Virus record (IMG/VR): IMGVR_UViG_3300007541_000182
Coordinates: 1 to 25,950 of that record
Length of the DNA: 25,950 bases
Direction: 5' to 3' (one strand)
Source of the DNA: a virus
The notes below the pieces were generated by a model. It was given only the letters and a program-made list of their open reading frames with translations. It made no database searches and was not told the origin of the DNA. Numbering within the stretch: position 1 is the first letter of the stretch; every line of letters begins with the position of its first letter. This document shows, one piece after another, positions 2,385 to 25,305 of the stretch. The position numbers and the translations under genes were made by a program.

Positions 2385-2849
2385 TTAAATTTTTGGATTT
2401 CGTCGTGTTGGTTTTTCGTTTAATAGTTTAAATCTAAAATGTTTTACTTCTGGTTTCGAAGAAATATATCCTTGAAGTTGTTGTGATTCTTTTGCTGGAT
2501 CATCTCCTAGCCTGAAATGAAAATATCCAAATCTTCCATCTCGAGACTTTTTATGAGTGATAATGTATATTTTCTTCTTAGTAGCAAAATTACGAATTTC
2601 GTGAGCTACTTGATCTGCCATGGCAGCATCTCGCAACATGTATTGAACTCCTCCTTTATAATCAGTCATATGATTAATAAGTTGAGCTTCATCTAGTTCT
2701 TCTTCTGTGATGTTAATTTCAACATTAGGATCTTTTGCTTTTAAATCAGAAACTGTCTCAGACCATTTTGGATCATCTTTTTTACTTACAGTAATCGATT
2801 CATTAATACCAAAAAATGATTTATACATGTTTTTAATTTTGCTCATCAT
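2385..2849 (-). CDS. Unknown 154-residue protein of the head operon
   Basis: I do not recognise this protein. It has a charged N-terminus (MMSKIKNMYKSFFGI), an acidic middle (NITEEELDEAQ), and a C-terminal half with alternating hydrophobic and charged strands (KKKIYIITHKKSRDGRFGYF) and a basic end. It looks soluble, with no membrane segment. Two adjacent ATG codons are possible starts; AAGGAA lies at proper spacing before them. It lies between the 135-residue gene and bS21 in the operon that makes the prohead, so a head-assembly role is possible but not shown. Confidence 0.75.
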   Translation of the reverse strand: MMSKIKNMYKSFFGINESITVSKKDDPKWSETVSDLKAKDPNVEINITEEELDEAQLINHMTDYKGGVQYMLRDAAMADQVAHEIRNFATKKKIYIITHKKSRDGRFGYFHFRLGDDPAKESQQLQGYISSKPEVKHFRFKLLNEKPTRRNPKI

Positions 2850-2890: not shown

Positions 2891-3298
2891 TTATTTAACA
2901 TCATAATATTTTTTAAGTCCTTCGCCGATATCATCAATTGCAGCAGAACATCGTCTTTCGTGAATCATGATTTCATTTGCTGATTTTTTTAAATCTTTAA
3001 GAGCAGCTTCAACCATTTTTAAACGACGAGACTCAGCAACTTTATCAAGCATATCATCTTCTGATTCATGAACCATTCTAGTAGCAGTTTCAACCATGTG
3101 TGATATACGTTCTACAATCTCTTCTAAATTTCTAGTTCCTGACACCGCTTCTGCCATTGCCGAATATGAAGATAGTGATTCAGCAAATCTTTGTTTATCT
3201 TCCATTGTTAATGGAGTTGGTTCGTCTTTTTCGAAAACTGTTCGCTTATCAGTTTCATTTAAAAAAGATTTAATTGTATTTAAGTTTTTTCCTAGCAT
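2891..3298 (-). CDS. Unknown helical 135-residue protein next to the protease
   Basis: Not recognised. The sequence is almost entirely predicted helix, with heptad-like stretches (residues about 58-125: EEIVERISHMVETATRMV, then LKMVEAALKDLKKSANEI). It has no signal peptide or membrane segment. The start follows AGGA at good spacing and lies 2 nt after the gp21 stop, so translation is probably coupled. By position it corresponds to the small prohead core proteins that surround gene 21 in T4-like phages. That role is inferred from location and helicity only. Confidence 0.78.
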   Translation of the reverse strand: MLGKNLNTIKSFLNETDKRTVFEKDEPTPLTMEDKQRFAESLSSYSAMAEAVSGTRNLEEIVERISHMVETATRMVHESEDDMLDKVAESRRLKMVEAALKDLKKSANEIMIHERRCSAAIDDIGEGLKKYYDVK

Positions 3299-3300
3299 TC

Positions 3301-3930
3301 TTATATCCTACATTTTCCATCTTCGCAAAGAATAGAAGTTATTATTTCATTTGTTCTGTGATATTTATCTGATACTGTTTTTGCAGCAACTGATTCATTC
3401 ATTCTTGTTGGTCTCATAAATGCTCCGTGAGTAGATGGATTTGAAACAAAGTCCCAACAAACCAATTCAAAATCTTCTTGAACTTCTACTGCACCTTCAC
3501 TGTATAATTCTTTAACGCTACCTAGTCCTCGAGAAGAAATACCTAGTGTTACACCGGCTTTAAGTAGTTCTTTTAAAATCTTTCCAGAAGGAGTATCTAA
3601 AACTAAAACATCTCCTTTCAAATCATTGCCTTCCCACCATATTTTTAAAACATTGTGAGAAACATTGTTTAGGTTAACGATTGCAGAGTCTGGATGATCT
3701 AGTTCGCCGAGTGCTCTGTTTTGATGAATAAATTCTTGTTCATATCGCTTGCATTCTCTTTCTAAGATATGTTTAGGATACACACGTCCATTTTGATTTT
3801 TAGCTCCTGCTCTTTGTAAAACGCCTTGAACAACATAACCGCCTGGAACACCATATTTAGCACCATTAGCTTCATTCAATGAGCCAACTGGTTTAAATGG
3901 CATATAATCTTGTATAAGTTGTTTTGACAT
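3301..3930 (-). CDS. gp21: Prohead core protease, gp21-like (assemblin-fold serine protease)
   Basis: 209 residues, the family's normal size. GELDHP (residues 75-80) carries the candidate catalytic His79, and GISSRG (130-135) the nucleophilic Ser, as in T4 gp21 and other S78/S80 prohead proteases. RAGAKNQNGRVYP (40-52) is the usual start of the fold. In T4 this enzyme assembles in the prohead core, activates itself and cleaves scaffold, capsid and internal proteins at maturation. The start at 3930 has AGGAG at ideal spacing. It is 1 nt from the previous gene and 2 nt from the next, in the order expected between portal and scaffold. The C-terminus (SILCEDGKCRI) may be a self-cleaved tail. Confidence 0.95.
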   Translation of the reverse strand: MSKQLIQDYMPFKPVGSLNEANGAKYGVPGGYVVQGVLQRAGAKNQNGRVYPKHILERECKRYEQEFIHQNRALGELDHPDSAIVNLNNVSHNVLKIWWEGNDLKGDVLVLDTPSGKILKELLKAGVTLGISSRGLGSVKELYSEGAVEVQEDFELVCWDFVSNPSTHGAFMRPTRMNESVAAKTVSDKYHRTNEIITSILCEDGKCRI

Positions 3931-3931
3931 T

Positions 3932-4528
3932 TTATTCTCCTAATGATCTTACGCGTTCTGATATTTTAATTAATCTCTCTGATATTTTATTTAATGCTCG
4001 TTCTACTTGAGGTCCATAACCATCCTTAGACATCCCGGATTCGGTCTTAAGACGAGATGCATGTTTTACCATTTCTTCAATTTCACTCATTTTTTTAGAA
4101 ACGTCTCGAATGGTATTTTTAACTTTCTTTTCTGGAGTTAATTTAGGATTATCTGTTACATATGAACGATAACCTTCAATAAGTTGTGCATATTTTTTAT
4201 CCATTACTTCTTGAACTTTTCGATATCCTAATGCCTCAATAGTATCATCATCAGCTTTTCCAAAAGCTTTCGGTGTCATGTATGCGCCAGCTCCTGCTGA
4301 TGTAGATGCTTCTTGTACATCATCTCCAGGTTCATACCATATGCCATCTCCATCATCATCTTGCCAACGTTTAGGTTTTCTATTTGAATCCAACGGACGG
4401 CCTTCTTCATCATGTGGTATAGGCACATCTTCATCATCTTGTTCAGCATCTGCATCATATGATGTTTCTGCTAATTCAGCTTCAAATTCTTCGAACTTTT
4501 TTTCTATTTCTTTTATAAATGATTTCAT
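3932..4528 (-). CDS. Unknown 198-residue acidic protein, probable prohead component
   Basis: Not recognised as a named family. Residues 1-40 form a very acidic helix-like segment (KFEEFEAELAETSYDADAEQ). Residues 54-70 (RWQDDDGDGIWYEPGDD) contain a DxDGDG loop of the calcium-binding type. An Ala/Gly/Ser linker follows (about 74-82), then a long charged helical C-terminal part (about 92-198). It overlaps the preceding gene by 4 nt (ATGG, stop within the start region) and precedes the protease by 1 nt. In T4 the small acidic core proteins gp67 and gp68 occupy this place between portal and protease, which makes a core role plausible, but I see no sequence proof. Confidence 0.75.
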   Translation of the reverse strand: MKSFIKEIEKKFEEFEAELAETSYDADAEQDDEDVPIPHDEEGRPLDSNRKPKRWQDDDGDGIWYEPGDDVQEASTSAGAGAYMTPKAFGKADDDTIEALGYRKVQEVMDKKYAQLIEGYRSYVTDNPKLTPEKKVKNTIRDVSKKMSEIEEMVKHASRLKTESGMSKDGYGPQVERALNKISERLIKISERVRSLGE

Positions 4529-11037: not shown

Positions 11038-11045
11038 ATAAATAT
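11038..11045 (-). promoter_or_regulatory. ATATTTAT element before the 253-aa gene
   Basis: Coding-sense ATATTTAT, overlapping by one base the stop of the preceding 1028-codon gene, with 21 nt to the ATG at 11016. It is part of TATTTATATATAAATA (11029-11044), the same perfect 16-bp palindrome as at 5398-5413. Confidence 0.6.
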
Positions 11046-14000
11046 TATCTGTTGTACTTTAGGATGCCTACAAGTTGATTAATAGGGGCGAATGCGCCGG
11101 TTAATTTATATGTATTACCGCCGTATACGAATACTAATCCTTCTATAGGGACAATTGCTTCAAATCCTCCAAGTCGTTGTATGCGACCTAATTGAGTACT
11201 TAATAGCTCTAATTGTTTAGGATCATTAGTTTGTCTCAAGGCTTTTATTGAATCAGCCATGTCTTGTCTTATCTGCTGAACAGCTTTGCTAGGATTTAAA
11301 GCTAAAAAGTCTGAAGCGTTCTTTAATACCATTGCTCCAAGTTTTAAAAATATTGATTCGAATGGTTCAATGTTTTGTTTTTGATACTTCTTAAAATCTT
11401 TTTTATCAAATTCATTAACCCAATTAGCAAAGTCTTCATTATCAATCTGTTTAACCAATGCAGTTATTCTAGTAGACTTATCTGCTAATGCCCAACGATT
11501 AACAAGAAGTTTTGTTACATTTTCTGGAATATTGTATCCTAATTCTTGAGCTTTAGTTTCAATAACATCTTTCCACCATGCCTTATGATATTCAGACACT
11601 AGATCTGTTTCATCTAAGCCGAATCGATTTTTTAACTGATCTACTTCATTATGCAAAGCATCTTGGTAATCTTCAAAATTGTCTACACGACCTATTTTTA
11701 ACTGACGTGGCGGAATAATTTGAAATGTTTTTTGTAAATGAGCATTAGCCGATTGAATAGCTTTTTGTAGTTCAGCACCTCCAGGCATATCTGTCATTAC
11801 CACATTACCCTTTTCATCAAATTCAGTTAAATTATGAAACTGCAGATAGGCATCTTCATATGAAATTACGTTTCTTGTTGCTGGATATATGATTTCCATG
11901 TTTGCAAATATGCGACCGTTCTTGAAAATTTCATTGAGTCGTTCTCGACCTAATTTTGATAAAGCTGCATTTAAATCTGTTCCTGCTTCACCAAAAGCAT
12001 CCGATATTGCTCCTCTACCTCCAAATTTTTCTTGAAGTTCAGCAACAGATAAAGGATTGACACGTTCTCTTGTACCCCTGGCAAATTTAACTTGACCATC
12101 TTTATATGTAACAAATATATTTTGTCCATCTGTTTTTTCAGTAACTGCCTGTTCCATGTCCAATCTACCATCTAATGCTCTGGAAATTATTTCTTTCATG
12201 TCATTGAATGTTAAACCATGAGTATCATATGGATGATTCATGTGGCCACCTAAACCGCCTTCGGTAATTATTCCTTCAGATATTTGTCTTTTTTGCAATA
12301 CCGTTTTAACTCGATTATAATTATCCTCAGTCCAATCTGGAGTTGACAGATCATATGCAACTTGTGTATCAAAATGCGTTAAACGACCGGCTTCATCCCA
12401 TCCCATATTATTTGCATGAGCTTCATACGGATTCAATTTAAACTTCTTCAACGCATTTAAAAAACTTTTTCTTTGTGATAATACTCGTTTCCAAAAATCT
12501 TGTGCAGGACCTGGTCTATATGCATTATCAATTAATCGATCAAATCTTTCATCACTACGATTATAATCCACGAAGTCTTGGTACAAAGTTCCCCATGTAG
12601 ATTTTTCATCATAATTAAATGGAGTTACATAATCCATTATGAGTGCATACCAGTCACTATCACCTAATCGACGAACATCATAATATCCTACAATATGTGG
12701 GTGTTTTGGCCTACGGTGTATACGCCATGCATTGTTAATTTCCGATTTATTGTCTGTAATTTTCATTACTCGACCAGATGCTAATTTATAAGCATATCCG
12801 AAATAACCTTCTCCGAGTTTTGACACGACATTTTCATGAAATGCAGATGCTATGCGATCAATTATTACACTATGAGAACTTAAATAGTCTCGGGTATATT
12901 CTGTTTCTATGTCATTATTATCAGGATCATTTACTGATTCAATTGTGTAAATTTTATCTTGTGGATTATTAGACTGCCATCTTTTTCTTTGTGCTTTTAT
13001 TGTTCTAGGACTCAATTTGATTTGTCCTAAACTAGGATCGAACCTTAATTGAAATGGCATATGTAATGGAACATCAAATTGATAATCAGATGCTACTGCA
13101 GTAGGTCTTTTTTCACGAAGTTGTGATACTATCTCTTCTCCATATTCATTTGCTAAGTCTGAAAATAAATTTTCTAAATCATCGAGTGTAATTGTTCCTT
13201 CATTTCTAGGATCATTTAGTCTGTCAATGAAATGAGTAAACTTGCCTTGAAAATCTACATCGATTCCATATTTTCGAAAAAAGTTATCGATGACAGGTTC
13301 GATCTCTGCTAACTCGGCTCTAGTAATATAATTTTCATGAAGCTTGGATTCTGTTAACTTGACACCAAATGTGGTTTTTTCGTAATCTCCAAAATCATAC
13401 ACAAACTCTTTACCGGGATTATCTTTGAGAAACTTTTTTAATTTTTCAATTTTCTTGCGATGTTTTTCAGCAGTTTTAGGATCCATGTATCCTTCGGTGA
13501 CTGCATCAATATCTTCTTGTAACTGAGATAACCACCACTCTTTAGATAGAAAGGTTTCCTGTGTTCCTCGTAATATCTGAAATATATTTTTTACTATAGC
13601 ATCTTTATACTGCGGATAACTTTGTTTGAACGTGTCATAATCAGACAAAGCAGCACGTGTTCGGGATGCGGAGATTGGTTCTCCATCTGTTGTTGTTAAT
13701 GGATCTACTGTGACCATTAATTCTACCGCATCTACTCCTTGTGGAATTTTTCTTCCGCTACGATCACCGGTAATTTTATATTTATCTACATTTCCGACAA
13801 AATCTTTAACTCGAACATAGTCATTGTCTTTGTTAGATGCAGCTAATGCATAAGTTCCTGATTCCGATGCTGGTAATGAAAATAAGTATTCATATGCAGC
13901 CATGATAGGACTGTTAAAATCGGTTGGCTGAAATTTTATTTTTGAATTTGCGTTTAATAGTTCAAATATCTGTTGACTATCGCTTCTAGTAATACCATCT

Positions 14001-14131
14001 CTTTCTTTCGGACCAACAAGCATAATAACTTGTGAAACCTGTGGATTATCAGCATATCTCTCAGCTAATTGCATATGAGCACCGGTTATTGGTTTGAACC
14101 CGCCCGGGAAAAGTACTGTTACATTGTCCAT
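11045..14131 (-). CDS. Multidomain nucleotidyltransferase - kinase-fold - polynucleotide ligase protein
   Basis: 1028 residues. (1) About 1-190: HIGH-superfamily nucleotidyltransferase (cytidylyltransferase/NMNAT type), with PGGFKPITGAH (9-19) and ISASRTR (153-159). (2) About 265-396: a middle domain (FTHFIDRLNDPRN, MPFQLRFD) of a type I associate with T4-like marine phage proteins. (3) About 435-600: protein-kinase fold, with glycine loop LGEGYFGYAYKL (439-450), Lys457, hinge LIMDYV (497-502), catalytic-loop-like EAHANN (570-575) and metal Asp588 in HFDTQ. (4) About 640-1028: covalent nucleotidyltransferase/ligase, with motif I KTDG (Lys666), FARGTRER (683-690), FANMEIIY (742-749), motif IV IEGLVF (996-1001) and motif V YKLTG (1008-1012). 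The ligase motifs suggest RNA or DNA end joining, while the substrate of domain 1 is unknown. An RNA-repair or nucleotide-transfer enzyme is the best guess. An ATATTTAT element precedes it. Confidence 0.85.
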   Translation of the reverse strand: MDNVTVLFPGGFKPITGAHMQLAERYADNPQVSQVIMLVGPKERDGITRSDSQQIFELLNANSKIKFQPTDFNSPIMAAYEYLFSLPASESGTYALAASNKDNDYVRVKDFVGNVDKYKITGDRSGRKIPQGVDAVELMVTVDPLTTTDGEPISASRTRAALSDYDTFKQSYPQYKDAIVKNIFQILRGTQETFLSKEWWLSQLQEDIDAVTEGYMDPKTAEKHRKKIEKLKKFLKDNPGKEFVYDFGDYEKTTFGVKLTESKLHENYITRAELAEIEPVIDNFFRKYGIDVDFQGKFTHFIDRLNDPRNEGTITLDDLENLFSDLANEYGEEIVSQLREKRPTAVASDYQFDVPLHMPFQLRFDPSLGQIKLSPRTIKAQRKRWQSNNPQDKIYTIESVNDPDNNDIETEYTRDYLSSHSVIIDRIASAFHENVVSKLGEGYFGYAYKLASGRVMKITDNKSEINNAWRIHRRPKHPHIVGYYDVRRLGDSDWYALIMDYVTPFNYDEKSTWGTLYQDFVDYNRSDERFDRLIDNAYRPGPAQDFWKRVLSQRKSFLNALKKFKLNPYEAHANNMGWDEAGRLTHFDTQVAYDLSTPDWTEDNYNRVKTVLQKRQISEGIITEGGLGGHMNHPYDTHGLTFNDMKEIISRALDGRLDMEQAVTEKTDGQNIFVTYKDGQVKFARGTRERVNPLSVAELQEKFGGRGAISDAFGEAGTDLNAALSKLGRERLNEIFKNGRIFANMEIIYPATRNVISYEDAYLQFHNLTEFDEKGNVVMTDMPGGAELQKAIQSANAHLQKTFQIIPPRQLKIGRVDNFEDYQDALHNEVDQLKNRFGLDETDLVSEYHKAWWKDVIETKAQELGYNIPENVTKLLVNRWALADKSTRITALVKQIDNEDFANWVNEFDKKDFKKYQKQNIEPFESIFLKLGAMVLKNASDFLALNPSKAVQQIRQDMADSIKALRQTNDPKQLELLSTQLGRIQRLGGFEAIVPIEGLVFVYGGNTYKLTGAFAPINQLVGILKYNR

Positions 14132-16835: not shown

Positions 16836-19390
16836 CATACATGATTAATCTGGCTGAATTTATTAATCTTATTAACTTCTAGCAAATTGTCTACCATATC
16901 ACGCATTGAATCAACGTGTGAAATAATAATAGAAAAATCAAATTTAGTTCTTAGATATTCGAACAGATTAACTACCGATGAAATGTGTTCTGCGTCTAAT
17001 GATCCCCATCCTTCATCGATTGCAATAAAATTAGGACGTGGTAATGCCGATACATTGATTAAACCAATTCGAATTGCCAGAGATGAAATAAATCGTTCCA
17101 TTCCACTCGTTAACTCCAATGGCCAAATATTATCTTCATCATACACAATATAACCATTAATGTTTTTTCCATCAGTTTGTAACACAATATTAAAATCTAC
17201 AATCTGATTGAGCACATTGTTAATTTCAGATTCAATTTTAGGTATAGCTTTTGCTACTAAGTCATATGGAACACCGTTTCTTTTTACCGATTGCAAATAA
17301 TATTCATATGCACGATATTCTGTTTCTATGCGTTTATATGTTTCTAATTGTGAAAGAGCGTTAGCTTTTTTAGTTTTAGCAACTTCAATTTCACCATGTT
17401 TCGTTTTTATGTTTTCTGATAAAACTTTTAATGCAAAATCAATTTCAGAGATCTGTTTTTTAATTTCCTGTATCTCAGTTTCGATTACAGCATTCTTTTC
17501 AATTGCAGATTTATTTTTAAAAAAGTGTTCTTGTCGTTCTTGGTTAGTTTCTAGTTCAGATTCTTTGGTTTGTAAATCACTTTCTATAACTTGTAATGCC
17601 AATTCATCTCGTTCTAATTTAGGAACATCGAACGTGTTAATTTTAGCGTGTAAGTCATTGTATTCGGTTAATTGCGTTTCATAGTGTTGATGCAATTCAA
17701 TTTTATTTTGTAAGGCTGTTTGTTTGATTTTTAACTGTTCTAATACTGCCTGATCTTCTTTAATCGTATTCTTGGCTTTTGTCGCATTTTGCACGAATAC
17801 GTTAGATGTGCAGTATTGACAATCTGGATCATATTCGTGATCGGATAAATGATTGATTTGTTTCTGCTTGCCATCAATTATTCCTTGTGTTGTTTGTATT
17901 TCAGTGTTTAATTTTAGTGCTTGTTGTTTTAACTCTTGAAGTGTATCGAATTTTTCTTGAATCGTTTTTATATCATATGATTTCAATTTCTTTTTGTTAT
18001 CAGATATAGTTTTTGAAAATGTTTCAATAAACGTTTCTTTTTCTTCTGCATCCGTTTGGAGTTGTTCAATAGCTTCAACTAATTGCGTTTCTTCCTGTGT
18101 TAAAGATTCTATAGAAGGACCGCTATATGTCGTTGCATGTTTTGATTCAATTAATTCCAATATTTTATCTTGGAGTTGTGATCTAGATGCATTTTGAATT
18201 GACTCCGAAGCTTCGCATTCAATGATATAATCTTTGTTTGCATCAATAATTGTGTCAGCTGAAGTTATAATTTCTGCAAAATCTGTCTTTTTATATTCTT
18301 TTAATTTACCGGAAGTTTCTTTGATATCTTCAGCAGCTAATTGATAAAGTTGTTCGAACACAGTAATATCTAAAAACTGCGAAAGCAAGTCTTTTCGTTC
18401 TCGTTGCGATTTATTGATAAAGTTATTGCTGTCATTTTGCAATGAAAATGCTGTTAATATAAAGTCATCATATGTACCTAGATACTTTCTGATGTTCTTG
18501 TTAGTTTCACTACGCTCTTCTCCGTTTAAATTTTCTGAATCAGAATAAAAATTAACATTAACTTTCACGTGTCCAGATTTCTGTGTTATTCCTTCTCTTT
18601 CAATGGTATATATTGTATCATTGATTTGAAATTTAAATATTCCTTTAAAGGTTGAACATTTATTATTTAACACTTCTTTTGCTTTTCCGGTTTTACTACA
18701 TTTGTCAAATATAACATATGTTATTGCATCTAATAGTGATGACTTACCAGAAGTGTTAGGTGCAAATAACCCGGTTACATCTGTTATTTTACTGAAATCA
18801 ATTTCATTGCCAGAACCATATGAAAACATGTTTTCAAACTCAAATGATATCGGAGTCCATGTGACGTGACGAACTTGATCGAGTATAGGTAATTTAGAAT
18901 TTATTGTGCGATTGATATGTCGAATTGCATCTAATTCTTCTGCAGTAGCTTGCGGATAATTATATTCAACAAAATCAGTAATTAAGTTGTTTTGATATTC
19001 AACATCTCGAACATTTCCAATATTAATATTTGCAGTAGTACCAGTTGCCGCATTAGTGTTAATTCTTTGAATAGAAATGTCTTGAACTGAATATTTAGAT
19101 CGCAAAGCAGTTATAAACTTTTTCATGTCTGCTGCATCTGTATTATCAAACTTGACTCGTATTCTGGGTTTATTAGGCATACGAGTAGGATGTTTTATGA
19201 TTTGTGCTCCTTGAACTTCGAAGGTAACATAACCGTAATCATTTTCAATTTGAACGAAATCTGCGGTGCAAGAATCTACATCCCATACCAATATTCCGTG
19301 ATCTAATGCTTCTCCATGATTCTGTTGGATTGTGCTACCGACATATCTTATTTCAGGCTTTTTTCTATATAACTTTATTTTTTTACTCAT
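16835..19390 (-). CDS. gp46: gp47 C-terminal segment fused to gp46 (SbcC/Rad50-like ATPase)
   Basis: 851 residues. Residues about 10-65 (KPEIRYVGSTIQQNHGEALD, HGILVWDVDS) are the distal part of an SbcD/Mre11 nuclease, the segment that normally follows GDIHK in gp47. From about 176 on it is gp46/Rad50: Walker A APNTSGKSS (210-218), Q-loop region FSLQND, a long coiled coil, zinc hook CQYC (524-527), signature LTSGMERF and Walker B FIAIDEGWGSLD (about 788-799; Asp792, Glu793). The 46/47 complex resects DNA ends for recombination-dependent replication. No stop separates the two portions, so this is an Mre11-tail-Rad50 fusion. The ATG overlaps the endonuclease stop (ATGA), and residues 1-9 (MSKKIKLYR) look like a newly acquired start segment. 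Confidence 0.92.
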   Translation of the reverse strand: MSKKIKLYRKKPEIRYVGSTIQQNHGEALDHGILVWDVDSCTADFVQIENDYGYVTFEVQGAQIIKHPTRMPNKPRIRVKFDNTDAADMKKFITALRSKYSVQDISIQRINTNAATGTTANINIGNVRDVEYQNNLITDFVEYNYPQATAEELDAIRHINRTINSKLPILDQVRHVTWTPISFEFENMFSYGSGNEIDFSKITDVTGLFAPNTSGKSSLLDAITYVIFDKCSKTGKAKEVLNNKCSTFKGIFKFQINDTIYTIEREGITQKSGHVKVNVNFYSDSENLNGEERSETNKNIRKYLGTYDDFILTAFSLQNDSNNFINKSQRERKDLLSQFLDITVFEQLYQLAAEDIKETSGKLKEYKKTDFAEIITSADTIIDANKDYIIECEASESIQNASRSQLQDKILELIESKHATTYSGPSIESLTQEETQLVEAIEQLQTDAEEKETFIETFSKTISDNKKKLKSYDIKTIQEKFDTLQELKQQALKLNTEIQTTQGIIDGKQKQINHLSDHEYDPDCQYCTSNVFVQNATKAKNTIKEDQAVLEQLKIKQTALQNKIELHQHYETQLTEYNDLHAKINTFDVPKLERDELALQVIESDLQTKESELETNQERQEHFFKNKSAIEKNAVIETEIQEIKKQISEIDFALKVLSENIKTKHGEIEVAKTKKANALSQLETYKRIETEYRAYEYYLQSVKRNGVPYDLVAKAIPKIESEINNVLNQIVDFNIVLQTDGKNINGYIVYDEDNIWPLELTSGMERFISSLAIRIGLINVSALPRPNFIAIDEGWGSLDAEHISSVVNLFEYLRTKFDFSIIISHVDSMRDMVDNLLEVNKINKFSQINHV

Positions 19391-20136
19391 AACTTACTAA
19401 AATTAAAATCTTTTATTTCATCTTCCCAAATACGTATCAATGTCCAGTCAGATGATTCTACTAACATATTTTTGTATTTGTCATTTTCTCTTGTTCGATG
19501 TTGTGCTTCATTTAACTCATTATCAGAAATACCTTTACCATGCCAATAAACACCATCGACTTCTAACAATATTTTTTTAGATGGTATTGCAAAATCAAAA
19601 TAACGTCCTCTAAACTCATATTGTGTTTCAAATATTATGTTATTATTTGTTAAAATATCAAACACTTCCTTTTCTGGTTTTGTTTGTTTAGTATCGTGTA
19701 ATATTTTATTCCGATAGTCGTGAGATGACATACCATATCTTTCTAACATTGTAATATCACATTGTCTTGTACCATATTTTCCTGATAAATTATGTCCGCC
19801 GTTAGCTTCAATAGTTTTATTACGTTTTTCAATTGCTTCAAGTGACCAACCAATTGGATAATCGCTATTTTCATCACGAGCTTTTTGTAAACCTTCTAAT
19901 CGCCTTTTACGAATTTCATCATTCTGCCATGTCTCAGTAGTTCGTTCCGCCCTCATTTTACGTTCTTCTGCCGATGCTTTTCGTCCAACATTATGATGTG
20001 GTTCTTTTTCATATTTTTCTTTTTTACGTCTTGAATCAGCTTTTGCATAACATGATCTATTACAGAACTTTTGTTTTGAGTTGAATGTTGAATATTCTTT
20101 TTTACATTCCTCACATATTTTTGTTTGTTTTGCCAT
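19387..20136 (-). CDS. Vsr-like (EDxHD-type) homing endonuclease inside gene 47
   Basis: 249 residues. The N-terminal zinc finger has Cys8, Cys11, Cys25 and Cys29 (ICEECKKEYS, FCNRSCY). The middle is charged, with NUMOD-like helices (about 50-115). The C-terminal nuclease carries EKEVFDIL (155-162), RYFDFAIP (178-185, Asp181), LEVDGVYWHG (191-200) and RIWEDEI (235-241), the arrangement of Vsr-fold endonucleases such as I-Bth0305I. Such enzymes cut a target DNA site and spread their own gene by recombination. It sits exactly between the two halves of gp47, overlapping the downstream half by ATGA. It has no SD; an ATATTTAT element and a hairpin precede it, which suggests its own timed expression. 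Confidence 0.88.
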   Translation of the reverse strand: MAKQTKICEECKKEYSTFNSKQKFCNRSCYAKADSRRKKEKYEKEPHHNVGRKASAEERKMRAERTTETWQNDEIRKRRLEGLQKARDENSDYPIGWSLEAIEKRNKTIEANGGHNLSGKYGTRQCDITMLERYGMSSHDYRNKILHDTKQTKPEKEVFDILTNNNIIFETQYEFRGRYFDFAIPSKKILLEVDGVYWHGKGISDNELNEAQHRTRENDKYKNMLVESSDWTLIRIWEDEIKDFNFSKL

Positions 20137-24762: not shown

Positions 24763-25305
24763 TTACCAATCAATCATGACCATATTTCCGTTCCACAACA
24801 TCACATTGCTAGTTCGAAAATCTAAATCTAAATCTAAATCAACAATTCCGGTTTTTTGAACGTCTTGTTGCAACGCTCTTAAAAAATTAACTAGTTTCAT
24901 GTCTGTGTTACGAGCTCCATCTGCATCTAGAAAATCAAATATTGATACTTCGCCACCCTCATTGCTAGCATATTCTTGATAATGTTTAATAAAACTATCA
25001 ATAGCAGCTGTATAAGATGCCGGTAAGGGATCTGCAACACTCATGATATACATGTTTTTTCCATCTACATAATACACCGGAATAAACGTGGAAAATTGAT
25101 CATGCCGACCAACTATAATTTCAGCAACACGATACTCTTCGCGTTCAGTAGTTATCTTAAACAAATAATCTTCATCGTTAAATTTATATATACGACCATT
25201 GTCTCCGCGATTAAAAAAAGAAAATTGTTTTTCTTTTATCATGTTTAACAATCGTTTAACATCTTGTTCTCTCATTTCTCGTATCAATGTGCTTAATCGT
25301 ATCAT
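24763..25305 (-). CDS. Small protein-kinase-fold protein
   Basis: 180 residues. A helical N-terminus (LSTLIREMREQDVKRLLNMI) is followed by a glycine-loop-like FNRGDNGRIYKF (31-42), the ATP-lysine candidate Lys50 (YLFKIT), hinge-like YIMSVADPL (86-94), catalytic-loop-like DFRTSN (162-167; Asp162, Asn167) and a metal-binding-like MIDW (177-180) that ends the protein. The C-lobe after the DFG equivalent is missing, so the fold is minimal. It may phosphorylate a small molecule or protein, or only bind nucleotide. Its ATG overlaps the stop of the LamG tail gene (ATGA), so expression is coupled. It has no close similarity by eye to the kinase part of the 1028-residue protein beyond shared motifs. 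Confidence 0.75.
   Translation of the reverse strand: MIRLSTLIREMREQDVKRLLNMIKEKQFSFFNRGDNGRIYKFNDEDYLFKITTEREEYRVAEIIVGRHDQFSTFIPVYYVDGKNMYIMSVADPLPASYTAAIDSFIKHYQEYASNEGGEVSIFDFLDADGARNTDMKLVNFLRALQQDVQKTGIVDLDLDLDFRTSNVMLWNGNMVMIDW
24816..24840. repeat. Short tandem hexamer in the kinase-fold gene
   Basis: The unit TAAATC (coding sense GATTTA) is repeated nearly four times. It encodes the alternating Asp-Leu run DLDLDLD directly before the catalytic-loop-like DFRTSN. Length change would add or remove Asp-Leu pairs without a frameshift. Confidence 0.7.

What the first reader, a model, noticed from the sequence alone, without database searches (positions are those of the whole stretch)
11045..14131. 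Four-part phage protein: nucleotidyltransferase + middle domain + kinase fold + ligase
One uninterrupted reading frame carries motifs of three nucleotide-handling enzymes: GGFKPITGAH/ISASRTR (HIGH superfamily), LGEGYFGYAYKL/HFDTQ (kinase fold), and KTDG, IEGLVF, YKLTG (covalent ligase). I know of no described enzyme with this order. T4 repairs cleaved tRNA with separate kinase/phosphatase and ligase proteins, so an all-in-one end-healing or nucleotide-transfer machine, perhaps countering host RNA cleavage, is a reasonable inference. A DNA-nick or cofactor-related role is equally open.
Basis: partly seen in the sequence, partly recalled or inferred. Interest (0 to 1): 0.85.

Follow-up and report, generated by a model that had tools for sequence, protein, structure and literature searches.

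The report
Phage enzyme kit cut inside capsid
A single long protein of a T4-like bacterial virus strings together four unrelated enzymes, and the joints look like cut sites for the virus's own capsid-maturation protease, so it is probably packed into the virus head, cut into separate enzymes and injected with the DNA to take over the host.

Summary
In detail: window 11045-14131 (minus strand) is one intact 1028-codon frame. It carries a HIGH-type nucleotidyltransferase (NT), a middle domain (M), a kinase fold (K) and a ligase-like domain (LIG). Relatives refute a frame error. NT+LIG is fused in many contigs, and modules are inserted or removed exactly at the joints: M, K, an HAD phosphatase, an SGNH-like domain, zinc ribbons.

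M has a RegB-like endoribonuclease fold (Foldseek E 1.9e-5). K is closest to the T7 gp0.7 protein kinase, not to a polynucleotide kinase. LIG has ligase motifs but no significant match.

Every joint carries [L/I/V/F]-x-E followed by G, S or N. The [L/I]-x-E form matches the T4 prohead protease gp21, and gp21 is encoded 7 kb away (PF03420, E 3e-33). Strict [LI]xE[GASN] sites occur at 49 per 1000 residues in joints and 2 per 1000 in domains. Relatives of NT, M and LIG sit behind T4-like capsid-targeting leaders (MKTFIQHITE|A; T4 IPIII MKTYQEFIAE|A).

Best explanation: a capsid-packaged precursor cut by gp21 into separate injected enzymes. Virion location and cleavage are inferred, not shown. New variant of T4 internal proteins and polyvalent proteins.

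The parts
11045..14131 (-). Whole polyprotein ORF, 1028 aa (NT-LK-M-K-LIG)
   Evidence: relatives
13493..14131 (-). NT, residues 1-213: HIGH-superfamily nucleotidyl(adenylyl)transferase-like domain, GGFKPITGAH ... ISASRTR, ending VTE|GY
   Evidence: invariants; best PDB profile hits are phosphopantetheine adenylyltransferases (E 0.016); homologous NT of L181 (40% over 78 aa); other polyprotein NTs pass the PF01467 cut-off
13349..13492 (-). LK, residues 214-261: short conserved helical/basic linker domain ending KLTE|S
   Evidence: alignment; present in 46 of 60 non-redundant members
12833..13333 (-). M, residues 267-433 (core 267-400): RegB-like (BECR-fold) endoribonuclease candidate; His300/Arg304 align with RegB His48/Arg52
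   Evidence: model pLDDT 92; Foldseek BFVD 'Site-specific RNA endonuclease' E 1.9e-5, prob 1.00, TM 0.68/0.65; hhalign register with T4 RegB (E 0.031)
12275..12832 (-). K, residues 434-619: protein-kinase fold related to T7-type gp0.7 (G-loop LGEGYFGYAYKL, VMK, EAHANN loop, HFD)
   Evidence: tblastn E 2e-4 and 65 phage records; blastp 28% over 158 aa; alignment; Pkinase E 0.083, below cut-off
11045..12259 (-). LIG, residues 625-1028: covalent-nucleotidyltransferase/RNA-ligase-like; motif I EK666TDG, III NMEII (E746), IV E997G, V K1009; about 200-aa helical insert
   Evidence: invariants across 124 sequences; PF09414 RNA_ligase hits in 12 of 32 members, best E 0.0021; in register with T4 Rnl1 motifs I and III but not significant
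13493..13495 (-). Predicted cut after E213 (VTE|GY), NT/LK joint
   Evidence: 35/43 relatives have [LIVFM]xE[GASN] at this joint
13334..13351 (-). Predicted cuts after E261 (LTE|SK) and E266 (LHE|NY), LK/M joint
   Evidence: 21/21 relatives
12833..12835 (-). Predicted cut after E433 (FHE|NV), M/K joint; weakest site
   Evidence: only the window carries this joint
12260..12277 (-). Predicted cuts after E619 (ISE|GI) and E624 (ITE|GG), K/LIG joint
   Evidence: P3 is Leu or Ile in 58 of 58 relatives with the site before LIG, P2 variable
3301..3930 (-). gp21-type prohead protease (Peptidase_S77), the proposed cutting enzyme; own N-terminus carries SLNE|A
   Evidence: PF03420 E 3.4e-33; phrog_207 head maturation protease E 5.6e-56

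Best explanation
The ORF encodes a precursor polyprotein of a T4-superfamily phage. It is made among the head genes, taken into the prohead core, and cut by the phage's own prohead protease (gp21) after the Glu of [L/I/V/F]-x-E sites at the domain joints. This frees an adenylyltransferase-like enzyme (NT), a RegB-like ribonuclease (M), a gp0.7-like protein kinase (K) and an RNA-ligase-like enzyme (LIG). These stay in the capsid with the DNA and are ejected into the next host, as T4 Alt and the IP proteins are. There K would phosphorylate host machinery and M would cut mRNA, while LIG and NT would reseal or supply nucleotides. Shown here: one frame, the domain families, module shuffling at joints, site enrichment at joints, a gp21 gene in the window, and capsid-targeting leaders on relatives. 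Inferred: packaging, cleavage, ejection, and the activity and target of each enzyme.
For: 1. Joints. In 60 non-redundant relatives strict [LI]xE[GASN] sites occur at 49.3 per 1000 residues in joints and 2.1 per 1000 in domain cores. 75 of 112 joints carry a strict site against a shuffled mean of 10 (maximum 22); with [LIVFM] it is 104 of 112 against 21 (maximum 34). LK/M 21/21, LK/LIG 25/25 and M/LIG 21/21 all have it. P3 is only L or I (58/58), P2 is free, P1 is E. 2. The pattern equals known T4 cuts at published positions (PMC9958956; PMC9026906) read on T4's own sequence: gp23 LTE65|A, gp24 LRE10|S, gp21 LIE9|T, IPII/III IAE10|A. 3. The protease is encoded in the window and in 19 of 24 records with these proteins, including all five whole-genome phage records. 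4. Relatives of the modules sit directly behind leaders like the T4 capsid-targeting sequence: MKTFIQHITE|A + NT, MKSFKEYISE|G, MKSFKQFTISE|Q + M; MKFLKSYEEFLNE|NLILE|GG + LIG; MKSILQEFKQHLTE|Q + NT; MNKLTEWLTKPFLDE|N + polyproteins up to 1552 aa. 28 of 31 distinct leaders have [LI]xE at residues 9-24, against 42 of 216 control ORFs in the same loci. 5. Modules appear and vanish exactly at joints. 6. Domain content is takeover-like: gp0.7-like kinase and RegB-like fold. 7. The Flavobacterium phage immuto has a polyprotein with LxE sites at its joints in the same neighbourhood, and CTS-bearing neighbours.
Against: The window protein itself starts directly with NT and has no N-terminal targeting leader; a recurring WW segment next to the cut sites is only a guess for an internal signal. 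No virion proteomics exist here. The statistics use related sequences, so counts are not independent events. The NT/LK and M/K sites have V or F rather than L/I at P3. [LIVFM]xE[GASN] also occurs at 441 (kinase G-loop), 715 and 870 inside domains. LIG has no significant fold or profile match: its model is only pLDDT 70 and Foldseek found nothing. M lacks the second catalytic His of RegB. K has Glu at the usual catalytic Asp position, as some gp0.7 kinases do.
Confidence: 0.74

Rival explanations
1. An intact multi-domain enzyme, not cut, acting in the infected cell as an RNA repair/modification machine, with the LxE motifs being ordinary linker sequence.
For: NT+LIG is a very stable pairing; HAD phosphatase or P-loop kinase modules occur in some relatives, as in end-healing plus sealing; LIG has RNA-ligase-like motifs.
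Against: Site enrichment at joints far above shuffled linkers; the sites match T4 gp21 cut sites; separate module proteins carry capsid-targeting leaders; K resembles a protein kinase, not a polynucleotide kinase; M is a likely RNase.
Confidence: 0.14
2. A polyvalent protein in the sense of Iyer et al. 2017: packaged and injected as one chain, either uncut or released by an embedded zincin peptidase.
For: Unrelated enzyme domains in one chain; kinase and BECR-type RNase domains are named polyvalent-protein modules (PMC5512222); relatives L181-L184 and immuto_183 contain HExxH zincin-like segments.
Against: No zincin HExxH domain in the window protein; joint motifs fit gp21 instead; no ArdC-N or other hub domain found.
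Confidence: 0.09
3. Frame error or chimeric assembly joining separate genes.
For: The M/K joint is seen only in this contig; K has no other close relative.
Against: NT-LK-M-LIG and NT-LK-LIG fusions recur in many contigs; the K/LIG joint recurs in L002 with the same downstream gene order; no stop in the frame.
Confidence: 0.02

Closest known systems
T4 internal head proteins (IPI-III, Alt) with capsid-targeting sequence, processed by gp21
   Same: Same protease family encoded beside it, same [L/I]xE cut pattern, same leader type on relatives, and host-takeover enzymes as cargo (Alt).
   Different: T4 cargo proteins lose a short N-terminal propeptide; here several different enzymes would be released from one precursor by internal cuts, and the window protein has no N-terminal leader.
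Polyvalent proteins (Iyer et al. 2017, PMC5512222)
   Same: Unrelated enzyme domains in one polypeptide, mosaic architectures, kinase and BECR-type RNase modules, predicted delivery with DNA.
   Different: Polyvalent proteins are proposed to be processed by embedded zincin peptidases; here the sites point to the prohead protease acting in trans, in T4-superfamily phages.
T7 gp0.7 (T7PK) protein kinase
   Same: K shares G-loop, VMK lysine, E/D-x-H-x-x-N loop and the final Asp, about 28% identity.
   Different: gp0.7 is made early from the phage genome and has a C-terminal host-shutoff domain (PMC4858673); K is a bare kinase domain inside a head-cluster polyprotein.
T4 RegB endoribonuclease
   Same: M has the same fold, with RegB His48 and Arg52 conserved.
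   Different: The second catalytic His (His68) is not conserved; M is a module of a polyprotein rather than an early protein.
T4 RNA ligases (Rnl1, PF09414 RNA_ligase)
   Same: Order and residues of motifs I, III, IV, V; motif III NMEIIYPATRNVISY resembles Rnl1 NFEFVAPTNRIVLAY.
   Different: Long helical insert before motif IV, motif V is YKLTG rather than KxK; no statistically secure match.

Membership tests
T4-type packaged internal head protein | phage encodes an S77 (gp21) prohead protease | tested here: met
   PF03420 E 3.4e-33 at 3301-3930; 19 of 24 relatives' records
T4-type packaged internal head protein | [L/I]xE cut sites at the boundary of the mature domain | tested here: met
   T4 reference sites
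T4-type packaged internal head protein | N-terminal capsid-targeting leader | tested here: not met
   window protein starts MDNVTVLFPGGF; leaders occur only on relatives
T4-type packaged internal head protein | present in the virion, cut and ejected | not testable with these tools
   no proteomics available here
Polyvalent protein | unrelated enzyme activities in one polypeptide with mosaic architectures | tested here: met
Polyvalent protein | embedded zincin peptidase or ArdC-N hub domain (common, not universal) | tested here: not met
   none in the window protein; HExxH segments only in relatives L181-L184 and immuto_183
Polyvalent protein | delivered with the DNA | not testable with these tools
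   inferred only
HIGH-superfamily nucleotidyltransferase (NT) | H/TxGH-type motif, ISxxxxR motif and profile match | tested here: met
   invariant H19, S154, R159; NTs of other polyproteins pass the PF01467 cut-off; a window-group NT (L003) is itself below cut-off
RegB endoribonuclease (M) | RegB/RelE-type fold | tested here: met
RegB endoribonuclease (M) | two catalytic histidines (48 and 68; PMC3014915) | tested here: not met
   His48 equivalent invariant, His68 equivalent is Ser in the hhalign register; so RegB-like fold, not RegB
T7 gp0.7 protein kinase (K) | sequence-level homology and kinase motifs | tested here: met
T7 gp0.7 protein kinase (K) | C-terminal host-shutoff domain | tested here: not met
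   only the kinase core aligns; so a kinase-domain homologue, not gp0.7
RNA ligase / covalent nucleotidyltransferase (LIG) | motifs I, III, IV, V with catalytic Lys | tested here: met
   at least 97% conserved K666, E746, E997, G998, K1009 in 124 sequences
RNA ligase / covalent nucleotidyltransferase (LIG) | significant profile or fold match | tested here: inconclusive
   PF09414 in 12/32 members, best E 0.0021; no PDB or fold match; hhalign to Rnl1 within the null range

The most novel reading that the evidence does not exclude
Many T4-superfamily phages make modular precursor polyproteins (up to about 1550 aa) that the capsid-maturation protease cuts inside the prohead into several different enzymes, so the virion delivers a defined cocktail (RNase, protein kinase, ligase, nucleotidyltransferase, phosphatases, ADP-ribosyltransferase-like domains) from one gene. 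New enzymes are gained simply by insertion between LxE sites.
Probability: 0.62. Interest if true: 0.88.

Novelty: new variant of a known kind. Interest (0 to 1): 0.77.

Why it matters
It gives a sequence rule, domains between [L/I]xE sites, for reading out which enzymes a phage injects. It extends the T4 Alt/IP idea from single proteins to processed enzyme cocktails, with a different processing route from the embedded peptidases proposed for polyvalent proteins. It is directly testable by virion proteomics in cultured phages such as Immutovirus and Mel-JY01, and it offers ready-made joints for loading several proteins into T4-type capsids.

Tried and rejected
Ligase structure: AlphaFold model pLDDT 70, no Foldseek hit; PDB profile searches empty; profile comparison with T4 Rnl1 reached score 23.8, within the range of column-shuffled controls (maximum 26.9), so it is not counted as evidence beyond motif register; comparisons with T4 Rnl2 and gp30 gave nothing.

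M against PDB: no significant hit, although some weak hits are toxin ribonucleases.

First CTS census with a too strict P1' pattern was uninformative and was replaced by a position-window test. The change was made after seeing the leaders, so the p value is descriptive.

TATAAATA late-promoter scan: 9 hits against 5.2 expected, not significant.

HAD module of L009 has no relatives in named phages; K not found in ten relatives' records.

Frame-error explanation rejected.

NMNAT/NadR as the specific activity of NT: only an annotation in phage immuto and sub-cut-off NCBIfam hits in other polyproteins, so left open.

PADLOC: only a weak mad6 (mads_6) hit inside the kinase fold, not followed.
Full report
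WHAT WAS CHECKED. The window is a 25,950-base viral contig record. All major genes lie on the minus strand: DNA primase, SbcD-like, an HNH gene, SbcC-like, an 881-aa ORF of unknown family, the target, two ORFs of about 220-250 aa and two smaller ones, terminase, portal gp20, prohead protease gp21, a likely gp22 scaffold and gp23. It is therefore a T4-superfamily phage head region. The nearest named terminases are Microcystis phage Mel-JY01 (56%) and Flavobacterium phage immuto (52%).

ARCHITECTURE. A viral-contig scan gave 32 relatives. Among 60 non-redundant relatives of the close group the architectures were NT+LK+LIG 25, NT+LK+M+LIG 20, NT+LIG 10, NT+M+LIG 2, LIG only 2, and NT+LK+M+K+LIG 1 (the window). 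LK is a short conserved linker domain. Others carry at the same joints an HAD-type phosphatase (L009, L047, L048), an SGNH-like domain (L066, L070, L085), a zinc ribbon (L063, L101), a basic segment (L012, L086) or an HNH-like insert (L113). A second, more distant group contains polyproteins of up to 1552 aa with a zeta-toxin/AAA_33-type P-loop kinase (PF06414 E 4e-9), a sub-cut-off ADP-ribosyltransferase hit and other domains, again ending in LIG. The K/LIG joint of the window recurs in a 99%-identical fragment (L002) followed by the same genes. The M/K joint is seen only in the window.

THE JOINTS. Each joint in the window protein has [LIVFM]-x-E followed by G, S or N: VTE213|GY, LTE261|SK, LHE266|NY, FHE433|NV, ISE619|GI, ITE624|GG. 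Only three sites of the [LIVFM]xE[GASN] form fall elsewhere, at 441, 715 and 870. In the 60 relatives strict [LI]xE[GASN] sites are 23-fold denser in joints than in domain cores (49.3 against 2.1 per 1000 residues). 75 of 112 joints carry a strict site against 10 expected from shuffling the same joints, and 104 of 112 carry the broader form against 21. Before LIG the residue three back from the cut is only Leu (41) or Ile (17), the middle residue is free, and Glu is constant. The relatives share ancestry, so these numbers are not independent. The site persists, however, when the upstream module changes from LK to M, K or a zinc ribbon, and in a stand-alone ligase (L036).

WHY gp21. In T4 the prohead protease gp21 removes 65 residues from gp23 and 10 from gp24, cleaves nine residues off itself (PMC9958956) and cuts the 10-residue capsid-targeting sequence from IPIII, where positions 8 and 10 govern processing (PMC9026906). 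Reading those positions on T4's own sequence gives LTE|A, LRE|S, LIE|T and IAE|A, the same pattern as the joints. The window encodes this protease (PF03420, E 3.4e-33). Of 24 records holding relatives, 19 have it above the curated cut-off, including all five whole-genome phage records (two of them metagenome-assembled); the other five are contigs that may be incomplete.

CAPSID-TARGETING LEADERS ON RELATIVES. Relatives of the modules were found directly behind leaders that look like T4's MKTYQEFIAE|A: MKTFIQHITE|A before an NT (L189), MKSFKEYISE|G (L185) and MKSFKQFTISE|Q (L195) upstream of M domains, MKFLKSYEEFLNE|NLILE|GG before a stand-alone ligase (L036), and MKSILQEFKQHLTE|Q before an NT of the close group (L081). 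The long polyproteins begin MNKLTEWLTKPFLDE|N, MNKLTRWLVETILTE|A, MDRLVKQLITPFITE|Q and similar. Among 31 distinct leaders 28 have [LI]xE ending at residues 9-24, against 42 of 216 distinct control ORFs from the same loci (Fisher p about 1e-14, relatedness not corrected). The cultured phage immuto has a 907-aa polyprotein with the same kind of joints in the same neighbourhood, annotated NadR, and CTS-like neighbours such as MKKVMGNLADLLLE|E on an HAD protein. The window protein itself has no such leader, which is the main gap. A recurring segment of the type LFT/SxxWWxxxL next to the cut sites may be an internal targeting signal; this is a guess.

WHAT THE PIECES ARE. NT: invariant HIGH-type motifs, weak best PDB profile hits to phosphopantetheine adenylyltransferase, 40% identity over 78 aa to the NT of L181, and other polyprotein NTs pass the PF01467 cut-off. 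The substrate is open; NMN is one option. M: the AlphaFold model is confident (pLDDT 92) and matches a phage 'site-specific RNA endonuclease' (E 1.9e-5, TM 0.68/0.65) and a phiM12 protein. A comparison with T4 RegB puts its His48-Arg52 pair on invariant His300 and near-invariant Arg304, but RegB's second catalytic His is not kept (PMC3014915). K: significant similarity to T7-type gp0.7 kinases. T7PK phosphorylates RNA polymerase, translation factors, RNase E and RNase III (PMC4858673), so a takeover role is the natural reading. LIG: all covalent-nucleotidyltransferase motif residues are conserved across 124 sequences and RNA_ligase PF09414 is by far the most recurrent Pfam family among members (12 of 32, best E 0.0021; the next has 3). 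Neither fold search nor profile comparison gave a significant match, and a shuffled control showed that the Rnl1 score is not above noise. Ligase is therefore likely but not secured.

EXPLANATION AND ALTERNATIVES. The evidence favours a packaged precursor cut by gp21 into separately acting injected enzymes. Shown: frame, module identities to the degree stated, module shuffling at joints, site enrichment, protease gene, leaders on relatives. Inferred: packaging, cleavage, ejection, enzyme targets. The intact all-in-one enzyme is the main rival; an uncut or self-processed polyvalent protein is the second. Iyer et al. describe multidomain injected proteins with kinase and RNase modules and propose release by embedded zincin peptidases (PMC5512222). 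The window protein has no zincin motif, and its joints fit the prohead protease instead. In the open-access library only four papers combine polyprotein, prohead protease and bacteriophage; judged by their titles and abstracts, and by passages of the polyvalent-protein paper, none describes this arrangement. Subscription journals and preprints were not covered, so novelty is provisional.

Noticed in passing
window 24763-25305 (-): A second kinase-fold-like 180-aa ORF with motif LDFRTSNVMLWNGNMVMIDW and an N-terminus MIRLSTLIREMRE that could be a targeting leader; no family match.
   Followed up: partly
window 2385-2849, 2891-3298, 3932-4528 (-): Small head-cluster ORFs with CTS-like starts and LxE sites: MMSKIKNMYKSFFGINE|S, MLGKNLNTIKSFLNE|T, MKSFIKEIEKKFEEFEAELAE|T; probable packaged or core proteins.
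   Followed up: partly
L113 3054-6260: An HNH-like segment of about 230 aa inserted exactly in the LLTE|GG joint before LIG, possibly a homing endonuclease, intron or intein; L246, L241 and L253 show similar C-GG boundaries.
   Followed up: no
L272 4182-4622: ADP-ribosyltransferase-like module (Tox-ART-HYD1, E 0.0026, below cut-off) inside a 1274-aa polyprotein, between IxE sites; a possible functional counterpart of T4 Alt.
   Followed up: partly
L187, L189 neighbouring genes: Separate P-loop-type proteins (VFLAGGAGSGK) with CTS-like starts MKSFKQHLQE and MKTFKQHLVE, similar to the P-loop module fused inside the long polyproteins L261, L277 and L304.
   Followed up: no
L009, L047, L048 joints; window residues 196-213; L262, L263, L319: A recurring segment of the type LFTPDWWTQEL next to the cut sites; candidate internal capsid-targeting signal.
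   Followed up: partly
L320-L324 (genome contigs): LIG relatives in bins named Pelagibacteraceae, Flavobacteriales, Euryarchaeota, Bacillus and Neomarinimicrobiota are on short MAG contigs, probably mis-binned phage contigs rather than host genes.
   Followed up: no
window 19387-20136 (-): HNH/homing-endonuclease-like ORF between the SbcD-like and SbcC-like genes.
   Followed up: no
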